Shown here: in pieces, positions 9,074-34,117 of the stretch
Numbering within the stretch: position 1 is the stretch's first letter
How the letters are laid out: every line of letters starts with the position of its first letter
Origin: Muribaculaceae bacterium
Lineage (GTDB): Bacteria; Bacteroidota; Bacteroidia; Bacteroidales; Muribaculaceae
DNA: 41,748 nucleotides
Reading direction: 5' to 3'
Assembly (NCBI GenBank): GCA_029062005.1
Contig: JAIDQZ010000038.1
Span: forward strand, 1-41,748
Translations under genes and position numbers: made by a program
The notes under the pieces: generated by a model
What the model saw: the letters and a program-made list of their open reading frames with translations, nothing else
Told to the model about the DNA's origin: nothing
Database searches by the model: none

Positions 9074-9108
9074 ATAGGGGACACGCGGCACAAGCCATGT
9101 GTCCCTAT
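9074..9108 (+). terminator. Stem-loop after the acyl-CoA synthetase, probable weak terminator
   Basis: ATAGGGGACAC (9074-9084) pairs with GTGTCCCTAT (9099-9108) with one bulged G. The following sequence (CATTTAACC) is only weakly T-rich, so termination may be inefficient. Confidence 0.6.
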
Positions 9109-9347
9109 CATTTAACCAAGTCATCACCCTCTTTTTCTCCTTCTATAGAATCATCCGGCATAATAATCACTTTTTTTTCATATTAAAAATATGTTTCTTA
9201 ACATGAAACATTAATGAAATAAAATGCAACATTTGTGAAATATCGCCAAATTTATTACTTAATATATCATTTTGCCAAAATTTTGAAATATTTTAATATT
9301 TTTGTAGCTTTTTGAAATCGTTTCTTAATTTCGTTGTAAAAAAGTTA

Positions 9348-9379
9348 TTTGGAAAGTACAGAAATAAGTATTAACTTTG
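9348..9379 (+). promoter_or_regulatory. Consensus promoter of the putative non-coding RNA
   Basis: TTTG (9348-9351), a 20-nt spacer and TAACTTTG (9372-9379) form a full Bacteroidota promoter, embedded in a strongly AT-rich region (about 9170-9370). The same -7 box is used by the tRNA-tuf promoter at 26866. No substantial coding frame follows. Confidence 0.85.
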
Positions 9380-9385
9380 CAAATG

Positions 9386-9706
9386 AAATCAAGAGAGATT
9401 TCTTAGGATAAGTCTTACGAGACAATGGATTTGAAAAATATATCGTAATACATTCGAACCTAATACATGAACTTATGGGACGGACCTGTGAAGGCCATAG
9501 ATGCGGCGGAGACCATAATACAATACCTAAACATTATACCTGAAACGCCTGAAACAATCTTTTGCTAACCTTTTACGATTTTGAATAAATCGATATATGA
9601 GACCTAACCAACTCCGCCGCGATCCCAAAACCCAAAAGATAGAAATAATTCAATTTAACTAATCTGAATATGAGAAGGGCTTCCCGATGGGAAGCCCTAA
9701 AATCTT
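9386..9706 (+). ncRNA. Candidate structured non-coding RNA of about 310-320 nt
   Basis: The unit runs from a consensus promoter to a strong terminator with no credible protein gene. Its pairings suggest a defined fold. GCGGCGGAG (9503-9511) pairs perfectly with CTCCGCCGC (9612-9620), and GGGA (9477-9480) can pair with TCCC (9623-9626), enclosing a hairpin GG-a-CCT/AGG-CC with a GUGA (GNRA) tetraloop (9482-9496). Inside the long-range helix CGATTT (9576-9581) pairs with AAATCG (9587-9592). It lacks the signatures I would expect for tmRNA (no T-arm), RNase P RNA or SRP RNA. Bacteroidales-1 RNA, as I recall it, is defined by just such a promoter and terminator, so identity with that or with 6S RNA should be tested. 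The longest inner frame is 33 codons (9467-9568), not significant by length. Confidence 0.65.
9674..9706 (+). terminator. Terminator of the putative non-coding RNA
   Basis: AGGGCTTCCC pairs with GGGAAGCCCT across the loop GAT (about 9675-9697), followed by AAAATCTTTATTT. The NYN-domain gene converges on it from the right, and the hairpin may also serve that gene, though the minus-strand side has no good T-run. Confidence 0.88.
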
Positions 9707-9738: not shown

Positions 9739-10386
9739 CTAGAACTCCGCCCCGATATTAAATGCAGGATCCTTGAGCTTATAAAGCAATTCATGCTGCA
9801 GTTCGGGATGATCATATACTATATGCGAAAGCTCCCAATGATGACCCGCCTCTTCCTTGAGCAACGGAGATGTTGCATCTACATCAGTAAGATTCCACGT
9901 CAACAGGACAGTCTTTATCTTAAGCGCCTTCAACTTACGCACTAACATTTCATGATCTGCATCACCAGTGATAAGCACGACATAATCGAATTTACGGAAA
10001 GTCGCAAGCTCATATGCCTCCAACGCAAACCATACGTCGACACCTTTTTCCACTACCTGCACCACACCGTCTTTCTCTACCTCACGCAAATGCTTATAAT
10101 GAAACACTACGTCATTCTCTATCAGGGAATCCTCAAATTTTCTTTCGTTGTAGAGGAGTTTCTTGTCATAAGCCTCTTTTACGCGGTAACGTCCACGAAA
10201 ATAATGGGCCTCTGTGATCTGGCAGTCTGATTGATCTACGTCTTCCTCCATGGCAAGACGGAAGGTTATGAAGTCAAACAGAGACTTCACGCGAATTATC
10301 GAATTCTCCGATTTCTTAAGGGCTCTGTTCACCTTGGCATAGTAGCCTCCATCAATGAACACTCCGACAGATATATATCCAAGCAT
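9739..10386 (-). CDS. NYN-domain protein, putative metal-dependent RNase (LabA/PIN-like)
   Basis: NYN domains are PIN-like folds that usually cleave RNA using clustered acidic residues. The 215-residue protein has the expected ones: Asp12 in GVFIDGGYY, Asp117 in KGVDVWFALEAYELA, and Asp142 and Asp144 in ITGDADHEMLVRKLK. The fold spans nearly the whole length, ending in a short unconserved tail, with no signal peptide or membrane segment. It is alone on the minus strand, divergent from folD (252 nt apart) and convergent with the putative non-coding RNA. Which RNA it acts on is unknown. I found no consensus promoter box upstream. Family assignment is firm; activity is inferred. Confidence 0.85.
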   Translation of the reverse strand: MLGYISVGVFIDGGYYAKVNRALKKSENSIIRVKSLFDFITFRLAMEEDVDQSDCQITEAHYFRGRYRVKEAYDKKLLYNERKFEDSLIENDVVFHYKHLREVEKDGVVQVVEKGVDVWFALEAYELATFRKFDYVVLITGDADHEMLVRKLKALKIKTVLLTWNLTDVDATSPLLKEEAGHHWELSHIVYDHPELQHELLYKLKDPAFNIGAEF

Positions 10387-26865: not shown

Positions 26866-26897
26866 CAAAGTTATAACTTTTTTTTCGATGCACCAAA
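26866..26897 (-). promoter_or_regulatory. Main promoter of the tRNA-tuf-secE-rpoBC unit
   Basis: On the minus strand TTTG (26897-26894), a 20-nt spacer and TAACTTTG (26873-26866) match the Bacteroidota consensus fully. The expected start is near 26860, about 55 nt before the first tRNA. It is the only full consensus promoter I found for the whole 13-kb unit. Confidence 0.9.
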
Positions 26898-27003: not shown

Positions 27004-28848
27004 TCATTCCACAGTCACAGATTTTGCAAGATTTCTCGGCATATCGACGTTTTTCCCCTTGTTGATCGCGATATAATAAGAAAGCAACTGAAGCGGAATG
27101 CTTGTTATGATCGGAGTCAGGCATTCAGGCACATCAGGAACTTCAATCACGTGGTCTGCAATATTCCTTATCTCCTTGTCGCCTTCCGTAACGATTGCGA
27201 TCACACTGCCGTGGCGCGCCTTTACTTGCTGCACATTATTGACTATCTTTTCATACAGATGGTCGTTGGGCGCTATAATCACCGTCGGCATCTCCGCATC
27301 GATCAGCGCGATCGGACCATGCTTCATCTCGGCGGCAGGATACCCTTCCGCATGGATATAGGAAATCTCCTTGAGTTTAAGTGCCCCCTCAAGCGCCACG
27401 GGATAGCTGTAGCCCCTTCCCAGATATAGGAAATTATGCGCATATGTGAAAATAAGCGAAAGTCGCTCAATCTGTTCATTGAGTTCGAGCGTCTGCCTTA
27501 CATAATCAGGCACCTTCAGTATCTCCTCTCCTATCTTGATAAGGTCTTCCTTCGGCATCGTGCCCTTTAGCTCGGCAATTGCCATCGCTATCAATGTGAG
27601 CACCATCACCTGCCCCGTAAAAGCCTTGGTGGATGCAACCCCTATTTCCGGACCGACATGTATATATGTGCCCGAATCGGTGTTTCTGGGAATGGAACTT
27701 CCCACGACATTACTGATACCATAGACATATGCTCCCGCATCATGTGCCATCTGTATGGCTGCAAGGGTATCGGCTGTCTCACCGCTCTGCGACACTGCAA
27801 TCACCACATCCCTGTCGTCAAGTACCGGATTACTATAGCGGAACTCGCTTGCATACTCCACCTCGACAGGGATCCGACACATATCCTGGATTAGATATTT
27901 GCCTATAAGGGAAGCATGCCATGATGTGCCGCACGCCACAATTATAATACGCTTGGCATTCATAAATTTCTCCTTGCTGTCAAGGACACCGCTTACGATA
28001 ATATCCTTACCCTCATTTACCACACGTCCCCTGATACAGTCAAGTAGTGTGGTAGGCTGCTCAAAGATCTCCTTAAGCATAAAATGCGGATACCCCCCCT
28101 TTTCAAGCTGAGAGATAGAAAGTTCAAGAGTCTTCACATCCACACTCGTCTCCTCATTATTGAGATTGACAAGTTTCAGCGGCCGTGTCTTGGAAACGAC
28201 AGCAATCTCATTGTCCTTGACATAGACCACATCCTTGGTGTATTCAACTATCGGAGTTGCGTCTGATGCAAGAAACATCTCCCCATCCCCGATACCGATC
28301 ACGAGAGGGGAACTCTTGCGGGCGGCAATAATAGTATCGGGACGATTTTTCTCTATGACCGCTATCGCATAAGCTCCAACCACTTGCCTCAATGCTTCCT
28401 TCACAGCCTCAAGAAGCGTGCAGTCATTGTGTGTGCGTATATATTCTATAAGCTGGACAAGAACCTCCGTATCTGTCTCTGACTGAAATTTACATCCGTT
28501 CTGAATCAGAGCGTCCTTGAGCACCTTATAATTTTCAATAGTGCCATTATGCACGAGAGCAATCTCCTCATCTTCACTAAAGTGTGGATGCGCGTTGCGG
28601 TCGGAAGGCTCGCCGTGGGTAGCCCAACGGGTATGAGCAATTCCGATACCACCTGTGGTATCCTTGTCTTTACAATAATTTTCAAGGTTAGACACCTTCC
28701 CAGCCGCCTTATACACATTTAGCGTTCCCGACGGACTTACCAAGGCGACACCGGCGCTGTCATAACCTCGGTATTCAAGTCTATGCAAGCCTTTTATCAG
28801 AATATCGTAGGCATTACGTTCTCCTACATATCCCACTATTCCACACAT
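27004..28848 (-). CDS. glmS: Glutamine-fructose-6-phosphate aminotransferase (isomerizing)
   Basis: GlmS makes glucosamine 6-phosphate, the first committed step toward UDP-GlcNAc for peptidoglycan and lipid A. The start is placed at 28848 so that Cys follows Met: the class II amidotransferase needs the exposed N-terminal Cys (MCGIVGYVG), and a longer frame from 28896 would bury it. The 614-residue protein has HTRWATHGEPSDRNAHPH and HNGTIENY in the glutaminase half, then two SIS domains with CGTSWHASLIGKYL, SQSGETADTLAA and the C-terminal DMPRNLAKSVTVE. It is the last gene of the minus-strand cluster, 77 nt after cca. That gap is far too short for a glmS ribozyme of the Firmicute kind. Upstream lptD also serves the envelope. 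Confidence 0.97.
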   Translation of the reverse strand: MCGIVGYVGERNAYDILIKGLHRLEYRGYDSAGVALVSPSGTLNVYKAAGKVSNLENYCKDKDTTGGIGIAHTRWATHGEPSDRNAHPHFSEDEEIALVHNGTIENYKVLKDALIQNGCKFQSETDTEVLVQLIEYIRTHNDCTLLEAVKEALRQVVGAYAIAVIEKNRPDTIIAARKSSPLVIGIGDGEMFLASDATPIVEYTKDVVYVKDNEIAVVSKTRPLKLVNLNNEETSVDVKTLELSISQLEKGGYPHFMLKEIFEQPTTLLDCIRGRVVNEGKDIIVSGVLDSKEKFMNAKRIIIVACGTSWHASLIGKYLIQDMCRIPVEVEYASEFRYSNPVLDDRDVVIAVSQSGETADTLAAIQMAHDAGAYVYGISNVVGSSIPRNTDSGTYIHVGPEIGVASTKAFTGQVMVLTLIAMAIAELKGTMPKEDLIKIGEEILKVPDYVRQTLELNEQIERLSLIFTYAHNFLYLGRGYSYPVALEGALKLKEISYIHAEGYPAAEMKHGPIALIDAEMPTVIIAPNDHLYEKIVNNVQQVKARHGSVIAIVTEGDKEIRNIADHVIEVPDVPECLTPIITSIPLQLLSYYIAINKGKNVDMPRNLAKSVTVE

Positions 28849-33755: not shown

Positions 33756-34111
33756 CAGCTGATGTCTGCGTCATCCTTGAGGAGAGCGACGCATCTGTCA
33801 ATTTTTGCAATCAATCTCTGCAGACGCCGTCGGGCGGAGATAAGATTCTCAGGTGAATCCGCAAGCCTATGCGACACCGTAAGAAAGTCTACTTCCATAC
33901 GGACTGCAACAAGCTCACGCTCCCGCTCCTCAAGTCGAAGTTTAAGTTCTTTCACTTCTTCCTTGAACCCCGTGCATTCATCGACCGCTTTGTCTCTTTG
34001 GGAGGCAAGCGAGGCAATCTTACTGCGAAGATCCCTTATCACTTGATGCATCTGACGGGCCATGCTTCGATAAATCTCTACAAAGTTAATATATTTTTTG
34101 GATATATCCAA
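33755..34111 (-). CDS. Small coiled-coil protein coupled to zapA
   Basis: I do not recognise a named family. The 118-residue product is almost entirely helical: heptad-like pattern from about residue 18 to 75 (RDLRSKIASLASQRDKAVDE, then KEEVKELKLRLEERERELVA), a short break at DSPENL, and a second helix with SARRRLQRLIAKIDRCVALL. It has no signal peptide or membrane span. It begins 6 nt after lptD and is coupled to zapA by a TGATG overlap. By position and shape it could be a ZapB-like partner of ZapA, but sequence similarity to ZapB is not evident to me. Confidence 0.7.
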   Translation of the reverse strand: MDISKKYINFVEIYRSMARQMHQVIRDLRSKIASLASQRDKAVDECTGFKEEVKELKLRLEERERELVAVRMEVDFLTVSHRLADSPENLISARRRLQRLIAKIDRCVALLKDDADIS

Positions 34112-34117
34112 ATAAAA

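What the first reader, a model, noticed from the sequence alone, without database searches (positions are those of the whole stretch)
9348..9706. Structured, apparently non-coding transcript with its own consensus promoter and terminator
A full Bacteroidota promoter (TTTG, 20 nt, TAACTTTG) and a strong terminator bracket about 310 nt that hold no credible gene but do hold GC-rich long-range pairing in an AT-rich surrounding: GCGGCGGAG with CTCCGCCGC at 100 nt distance, plus a GNRA-capped hairpin and an outer GGGA/TCCC helix. This layout fits an independent small RNA. It may be Bacteroidales-1 RNA or 6S RNA, or something undescribed.
Basis: partly seen in the sequence, partly recalled or inferred. 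Interest (0 to 1): 0.72.

Follow-up and report, generated by a model that had tools for sequence, protein, structure and literature searches.

The report
Clamp-loop RNA sponge against FopS
A gut-type bacterium whose near relatives are filed under Muribaculaceae carries a strongly conserved RNA gene without a conserved protein frame, whose long-range stem closes a loop that is complementary (17 pairs, one mismatch) to the FopS small regulatory RNAs of sister species, so the RNA, if it is transcribed as predicted, would likely soak up such regulators.

Summary
The feature is real. Promoter, ~315-nt body and end hairpin recur, once per genome, in 14 of 111 genomes of the window's genus. The core is 70-92% identical to 12 relatives while four-fold sites of neighbouring genes are 22-55%; the 33-codon frame is full length in 2 of 13. 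No Rfam family matches. The clamp stem is invariant in the clade, but is replaced with matching changes in a longer sister RNA. An upstream palindrome, ATGTTNNNNARCAT, lies 181-183 bp before the promoter in 12 of 13 form A loci and recurs in 17 of 48 NYN-glmS gaps of sister species. Following it led to FopS sRNAs (RF04319). All 16 sister loops tested are antisense to the FopS seed; form A loops are not, but 12 of 13 are antisense to the FopS block after the seed (z -5.3 to -6.9), at 9555-9572 in the window. Best reading: a FopS sponge RNA; Bacteroidales-1 is not supported, 6S unlikely. Weak points: no transcript data; no FopS seen in the 41% of this genome I could read; the second-block test came after the seed test had failed.

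The parts
9191..9204 (.). Palindrome ATGTTTCTTAACAT (consensus ATGTT-N4-ARCAT), predicted operator 181 bp before the -7 box
   Evidence: 181-183 bp before TAnnTTTG in 12 of 13 form A loci (the 13th, G108, has only 129 bp upstream) and present in 17 of 48 NYN-glmS gaps; 97 matches of palindrome plus spaced promoter in 111 genomes against 4 for the reversed pattern
9348..9379 (+). Bacteroidota-type promoter, TTTG-20-TAACTTTG
   Evidence: TTTGG and TTAAYTTTG in all 13 rows of A2 that hold this part, window included
9386..9706 (+). Predicted RNA (form A), about 310-320 nt; start and end inferred, not measured
9458..9472 (+). Conserved 5' block ACCTAATACATGAAC; resembles a FopS antisense site by eye, but the 5' part as a whole scores no better than shuffles
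   Evidence: negative duplex test in 13 of 13
9477..9480 (+). Outer helix, 5' arm (GGGA), pairs with 9623-9626
   Evidence: 88.5% of cells paired, one pair changed on both sides
9485..9494 (+). Hairpin CCU-GUGA-AGG, GNRA loop
   Evidence: 100% of cells paired; C-G to U-A in G102
9503..9511 (+). Clamp stem, 5' arm GCGGCGGAG
   Evidence: Invariant in 13 of 13; compensatory change against form B
9512..9611 (+). Clamped A/T-rich loop, 100 nt
9555..9572 (+). Predicted FopS pairing site CAATCTTTTGCTAACCTT; holds 9557-9569, one of the two longest runs of invariant columns (13 each)
   Evidence: 17 bp (one G-U) with one mismatch to FopS AAGGTTAACAGAAGATTG of G035 and G061, -20.5 kcal/mol, z -5.85, 0 of 200 shuffles; same in 12 of 13 form A loops; random 23-mers of this genome reach it 5 of 11,523 times; invariant runs
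9576..9592 (+). Small hairpin CGATTT...AAATCG in the loop
   Evidence: 92.3% of cells paired
9612..9620 (+). Clamp stem, 3' arm CTCCGCCGC
9623..9626 (+). Outer helix, 3' arm TCCC
9638..9664 (+). Conserved 3' block GATAGAAATAATTCAATTTAACTAATC, function unknown
   Evidence: Nearly invariant in 13
9676..9698 (+). End hairpin, predicted terminator (weak T-tract), could serve both strands
   Evidence: not listed by the scan
9739..10386 (-). Neighbour: NYN-domain (PF01936) protein, 215 aa, near this RNA gene in both genomic arrangements seen

Best explanation
This is a gene for a conserved RNA that is predicted to be transcribed on its own and likely works as a sponge for FopS small RNAs. Shown in sequence: promoter, upstream palindrome, a GC-rich long-range stem that closes a 100-nt A/T-rich loop, and in that loop a near-invariant stretch complementary (17 pairs, one mismatch) to the block that follows the seed in FopS of sister species. 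Inferred: the gene is transcribed; the stem clamps the loop open; the loop pairs with FopS and takes it away from its mRNA targets or its RNA-binding protein; the palindrome, which also lies before FopS genes of sister species, sets sponge and FopS under one regulator. What looks like the same gene in sister species has another body and another clamp sequence, with loops antisense to the FopS seed itself.
For: Conservation far above neutral with no kept frame. Clamp covariation between forms A and B: 7 of 15 pairs changed on both sides, 93.3% of cells paired, slid controls 34-44% (arms picked by me). Shared palindrome upstream. FopS identified by Rfam behind the same palindrome. Antisense: 16 of 16 sister loops z -2.97 to -5.90 against the FopS seed, 0-3 of 300 shuffles, controls -2.3 to +2.0; 12 of 13 form A loops z -5.3 to -6.9 against the FopS 3' block, 0 of 200, and z -2.8 to -4.3, 0-3 of 200, against the whole FopS 5' stretch; 7 of 7 form B 5' parts z -6.9 to -7.9 against that block. 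Both partners in one genome: G035 and G061. Two further RNAs, RNA X (in this genome too) and the Bacteroides BTnc060 consensus, carry a similar antisense core.
Against: No expression or interaction data. No canonical FopS in the 1.27 of 3.06 Mb of this genome that I could read (one chance-like site with 3 mismatches). Form A loops show nothing against the FopS seed (13 of 13 near z 0), nor do the 5' part (13 of 13) or the 3' part (4 tried; best G102, z -2.4). The second-block test was made after those failures, on seeing the BTnc060 alignment. G117 fails it (z -1.37, 18 of 200). In G035 the loop is not significant against its own FopS (43 of 200); its 5' part is (1 of 200). Controls for form A, run against the whole FopS stretch only, are not all flat: reverse complement down to z -2.99, reversed down to -1.8. 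A profile of form A finds no form B RNA, so the kinship of the two is inferred.
Confidence: 0.66

Rival explanations
1. A decoy for an RNA-binding protein (an RRM protein such as RbpB, or the neighbouring NYN nuclease): the clamp displays single-stranded repeats (CCTRA/CCTGAAAC) that titrate the protein, and the likeness to FopS antisense is a by-product.
For: Window transcript has 5 CCTRA against 1.1 in shuffles, none of 1000 as high; G117 carries one more CCTGAAA unit; the NYN gene stays near the RNA in two arrangements; RbpB prefers single-stranded parts of its sRNA ligands and binds FopS (PMC11697453, passages).
Against: CCTRA is not enriched at the 5% level in any of 7 form B RNAs; one of the two best-kept runs is antisense, not identical, to FopS.
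Confidence: 0.15
2. A trans-acting antisense sRNA whose targets are mRNAs of neighbouring genes (glmS, NYN) or others.
For: In sister lineages the RNA gene sits between NYN or a lipoprotein gene and glmS.
Against: Sister loops against glmS and NYN start regions: 12 loci, z -2.1 to +2.7, no consistent pairing (form A not tested against them); 12- to 14-mers complementary to the window RNA in 1.27 Mb of the genome are about as many as for the reversed control; in the window glmS lies 17 kb away (27007-28848).
Confidence: 0.08
3. A diverged 6S RNA, regulating RNA polymerase.
For: 6S exists in Bacteroides thetaiotaomicron (PMC7366714, passages) and was not found by model in this genome.
Against: The models are nearly blind in this order, so absence is uninformative; a clamped 100-nt loop instead of a long hairpin with a central bubble; a different body in sister species.
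Confidence: 0.03
4. FopS acts on this RNA rather than the reverse: the RNA is a regulated effector and pairing controls its stability.
For: Same antisense data.
Against: Several FopS-like sites per sister RNA and two further antisense RNAs look like titration.
Confidence: 0.08

Closest known systems
BTnc060 (RF04184), Bacteroides sRNA of 213 nt
   Same: Its consensus holds CCUGAAAACAAUCUUUUUACCUUAA...CUAAUACC...GAAAAC, which is like the window's CCUGAAACAAUCUUUUGCUAACCUU; that core is complementary to the FopS consensus (z -5.05, 0 of 300).
   Different: The window RNA does not reach its cut-off and is not listed up to E 10; length and clamp differ. No paper in the held library holds the word BTnc060.
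FopS / GibS sRNAs (RF04319, RF04182)
   Same: FopS is the predicted partner: a single-stranded 5' stretch plus terminator, with the same palindrome before its promoter in this genus.
   Different: The window RNA is complementary to FopS, not a member.
Bacterial sRNA sponges such as SroC or RbsZ (recalled, no call)
   Same: RNA that pairs with an sRNA and takes it out of action; PMC7366714 names sRNA sponges as an emerging class (passage).
   Different: Those I recall are mostly pieces of mRNAs or tRNA precursors; this is a separate gene with its own promoter and a long-range clamp, and sister lineages have a different body.
RbpB protein
   Same: Reported to counter FopS-10, possibly by titrating it away from its target mRNA (PMC11697453, passages): the same effect as predicted here.
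   Different: A protein, not an RNA.
CsrB/RsmZ protein-sponge RNAs (recalled, no call)
   Same: Repeated motifs displayed by an RNA scaffold to titrate a regulator.
   Different: The partner predicted here is an RNA.

Membership tests
sRNA sponge (functional class) | Complementary to a known sRNA beyond chance | tested here: met
   12 of 13 form A loops against the FopS 3' block of sister species, a block chosen after the seed had failed; 16 of 16 sister loops against the seed; 5 of 11,523 random 23-mers as good
sRNA sponge (functional class) | Partner sRNA present in the same genome | tested here: inconclusive
   Not found in 41% of G000; with sister forms, FopS is present in G035 (Rfam) and G061 (by its letters)
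sRNA sponge (functional class) | Lowers activity or level of the sRNA | not testable with these tools
   Needs an experiment
BTnc060 (RF04184) | Reaches the family's gathering score of 228.9 bits | tested here: not met
   No BTnc060 match for the window at gathering or up to E 10
6S RNA (RF00013, RF01685) | Match to a 6S covariance model | tested here: inconclusive
   No match, but the models are nearly blind here
6S RNA (RF00013, RF01685) | Long hairpin with one central bubble | tested here: not met
   Fold shows a 9-bp long-range stem around a 100-nt loop
Bacteroidales-1 (RF01693) | Match to the covariance model | tested here: not met
   Not listed at gathering or up to E 10
tmRNA | tRNA-like ends and tag frame | tested here: not met
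   ARAGORN lists five tRNAs and no tmRNA in the window; Rfam none
FopS (RF04319) | Match to the model | tested here: not met

The most novel reading that the evidence does not exclude
Gut Bacteroidales keep a dedicated class of clamp-loop sponge RNAs that rein in the multicopy FopS/GibS sRNAs: one gene locus beside an NYN nuclease, one shared operator for sponge and FopS, and a body that is rebuilt in every lineage while the antisense blocks and the clamp are kept by co-variation with FopS. BTnc060 would be the Bacteroides member, still unrecognised, which makes the idea testable in a model strain.
Probability: 0.5. Interest if true: 0.85.

Novelty: new variant of a known kind. Interest (0 to 1): 0.74.

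Why it matters
FopS is a large sRNA family in gut Bacteroides that represses a glycan-uptake gene and is countered by the global RNA-binding protein RbpB (PMC11697453, passages). A conserved RNA that pairs with it would add a second, RNA-level check, and the shared palindrome would tie both to one signal. It also shows an RNA gene whose body differs almost completely between sister species while operator, clamp and antisense blocks remain, which sequence searches and Rfam models miss. The BTnc060 link makes it testable at once in B. thetaiotaomicron.

Tried and rejected
Rejected: protein-coding frame (2 of 13); phage or plasmid origin (no match); control of glmS or NYN by pairing at their starts (12 sister loci); Bacteroidales-1, and 6S with less certainty (above). 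Led nowhere: the profile of form A against 60 sister loci found no form B RNA, so A-B kinship rests on palindrome, promoter, NYN neighbour, clamp and the FopS block; unfiltered model R1 put two of its top four weak hits (E 1 and 2.9) in form B RNAs. The leave-one-lineage-out motif test (19 sequences) reached p of at most 0.01 in 6, and was weak for form A (window 0.08, G102 0.46, G086 0.64). Palindrome-promoter spacings of 172, 182-185, 196 and 205-208 look about one helical turn apart, but four clusters are too few; where a gap has several TAnnTTTG I chose the one, so spacings lean on that choice. The one exact 14-mer complementary to the loop, near 22.5 kb before a 124-aa frame that reads like ribosomal protein L7/L12 (recalled), is what chance gives (one for the reversed control too).

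Dropped or partial rows: G012, cut by its contig end, is left out of A3 and the fold. G007 was left out of A6 because its stem lacks one pair (it pairs by eye). The stem arms in A6 were picked by me because they pair, which favours control (a). In one search, 13 of 24 gaps beat all 20 shuffles and 11 did not, among them all three of group C; L115 and L116 beat them without a promoter. One search's 16 sister loops (13 cut at a clamp, 3 by hand) are those I had located among the 60 loci fetched, plus G019; L094, L100 and L101 were not run there. L094's gap was mis-cut (102 bp). The 'sense' control is no control, because both strands were scanned.

Full report
Observation. The promoter pattern is rare (5 in the window, 0.30 expected) and the fold is better than all 100 shuffles (z -3.07). 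The end hairpin is real but its T-tract is poor and the scan did not list it. No Rfam family matches at gathering score; matches up to E 10 are unrelated weak ones.

Distribution. BLAST in the 111 genomes held of the genus matched 15, of which one (G089) is a 37-bp stretch only; a covariance model gave the other 14 of 111 and, in 397 genomes drawn from the family, 12 matches, all in the same genus. An exact core pattern over the named species genomes found 12 contigs, all MAGs: nine titled Muribaculaceae or Muribaculum, two Porphyromonadaceae, one Bacteroidales; none in viral contigs. The 13 genomes whose NYN protein is at least 91% identical to the window's all carry the RNA, and the next NYN is 88% (the 14th carrier, G117, ends before NYN), so the carriers look like one clade. 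Of 13 relatives, 11 show the AMP-ligase upstream and 11 show NYN downstream on the other strand; the missing cases are contig ends (G086 has one gene inserted before NYN).

Selection. Between the window and 12 relatives the RNA core (9437-9668) is 70-92% identical, while four-fold sites of tsf, acs, NYN and folD are 22-55%. Within the clade the clamp stem is invariant, which says nothing for pairing; one pair of the outer helix and one of the GUGA-capped hairpin change on both sides, once each.

Sister form. Scanning 17 NYN loci of sister species with the model, filters off, gave two weak hits (E 1 and 2.9) inside a longer RNA of roughly 570 nt; BLAST and alignment showed it in seven loci, and a second model found it in 8 of 111 genus genomes. 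Here the order is NYN, lipoprotein, RNA, then glmS. Its clamp is GGCGCGGAG/CTCCGCGCC in most. Set against the window's, with the outer helix, 7 of 15 pairs change on both sides and 93.3% of cells pair, against 34-44% when slid (six rows; I chose the arms for pairing). Other lineages have further conserved blocks in the same gap; in 13 of 24 gaps the best long-range stem beats all 20 shuffles, in 11 it does not. Profile searches do not join form A to these.

Operator. Upstream of the promoters lies ATGTT-N4-ARCAT. In form A it is 181-183 bp before the -7 box in 12 of 13 loci; the other contig starts too late. It is in 17 of 48 NYN-glmS gaps: 182-185 bp in nine, 205-208 in six (all form B), 172 and 196 in one each, taking the box that starts the RNA where several exist. 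Palindrome plus a promoter at 180-208 bp occurs 97 times in 111 genomes against 4 for the reversed pattern, and once in the window's genome, at this gene. It is therefore a genus-wide site, not special to this RNA. A 5-4-5 palindrome recalls Crp/Fnr-type sites (recalled, no call).

Partner. Five of the palindrome hits outside this locus begin a transcript with GTTTTTCATGGTATTAGATTTTAAGG, the reverse complement of the loop motif ACCTTAAATCTAATACCATGAAAAC that I had collected from sister loops before. Rfam names one of them FopS, RF04319, 75 bits, and two more. FopS is a multicopy sRNA family bound by RbpB in B. thetaiotaomicron; RbpB counters FopS-10, possibly by titrating it (PMC11697453, passages). 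The word sponge or decoy does not occur in that text. GibS rises on GlcNAc, mucin and starvation (PMC10994844, passage).

Antisense tests. Against the FopS seed, 16 of 16 sister loops have z -2.97 to -5.90 (0-3 of 300 shuffles) with reversed and reverse-complement controls between -2.3 and +2.0, while 13 of 13 form A loops sit near zero; the form A 5' part (13 of 13) and 3' part (4 tried, best z -2.4) also fail. After one search showed that the Bacteroides sRNA BTnc060 is like the window loop (CCUGAAAACAAUCUUUU against CCUGAAACAAUCUUUU), I tested the FopS block after the seed: 12 of 13 form A loops reach z -5.3 to -6.9 (0 of 200), G117 does not (18 of 200), and form B 5' parts reach z -6.9 to -7.9 (7 of 7). 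Against the whole FopS 5' stretch the same 12 reach z -2.8 to -4.3 (0-3 of 200), where the reverse-complement control falls to -2.99 in one (G107) and -2.58 in another (G005). In the window the site is 9555-9572, 17 bp with one mismatch, -20.5 kcal/mol; 5 of 11,523 random 23-mers of this genome, and 1 of 2,925 of like GC, do as well. Bases 9549-9570 are mostly unpaired in the predicted ensemble (0.68) and the clamp is fully paired. The block was tested after the seed had failed, so its probability should be read with that in mind; the agreement of form B at the same block is the separate check. Against their own FopS, G035's 5' part (1 of 200) and G061's loop (1 of 200) pass and G035's loop (43 of 200) does not.

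Two further antisense RNAs. A ~95-nt unit (RNA X), with the palindrome before it in eight fetched relatives' loci, lies in this genome too (G000 C41) and is strongly antisense to FopS (six genomes z -4.8 to -7.0; this genome z -6.2 on repeat). The BTnc060 consensus core pairs with the FopS consensus along both blocks (z -5.05, 0 of 300). No paper in the held library holds the word BTnc060, and the listings of my searches for a FopS sponge and for Bacteroides RNA work showed none on a FopS sponge; I read passages of four of those papers only (PMC7366714, PMC2864571, PMC11697453, PMC10994844), and of PMC10294740 on another question, and subscription journals are mostly not held.

Verdict. Shown: a conserved RNA gene with palindrome, promoter and clamp, and a loop complementary to FopS of sister species. 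Predicted: transcription, pairing, titration. Open: FopS itself was not seen in the 1.27 of 3.06 Mb of this genome that I could read.

Noticed in passing
L311 (G000:C41:20001-40000, minus strand, about 18,564 from the reverse-strand start); also L222, L223, L228, L219, L220, L221, L213, L203: A ~95-nt RNA-like unit with end hairpin, AACAATCTTTTTACCTTAAGATTTTTTACCTGTAGAAAC, strongly antisense to FopS and weakly like BTnc060 (29.6 bits, below its cut-off); in the eight relatives' loci it has the palindrome 63-64 bp before its -7 box.
   Followed up: partly
L193 1221-1260 and 1500-1540, L215 54-90 and 475-510, L216, L217, L218: FopS genes of this genus have the ATGTTNNNNARCAT palindrome (one copy in L215 with its last base changed) 32-34 bp before the -7 box, with two copies in L193 and in L215: perhaps one regulon of FopS, sponge and RNA X.
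   Followed up: partly
window 9186-9345: The ~150 bp between palindrome and promoter are also conserved among window, G005 and G014; more protein sites may lie there.
   Followed up: no
NYN-glmS region of L113, L120, L117, L114, L118, L112: A further conserved RNA-like block (GACATNTTGAGACYNTTCCG ... TAGTTGAAGTGA) near NYN in six species.
   Followed up: partly
window 27007-28848 (-): glmS lies 17 kb from the RNA in the window, whereas in sister species it follows the RNA; the NYN-RNA pair and glmS have come apart.
   Followed up: partly
window 9077-9105: Strong hairpin GGGGACACGCGGCACAAGCCATGTGTCCC just after the AMP-ligase gene, presumably its terminator.
   Followed up: no
window 26866-26897 (-) and 34081-34112 (-): Two further full Bacteroidota promoters, the first just upstream of the tRNA cluster.
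   Followed up: no
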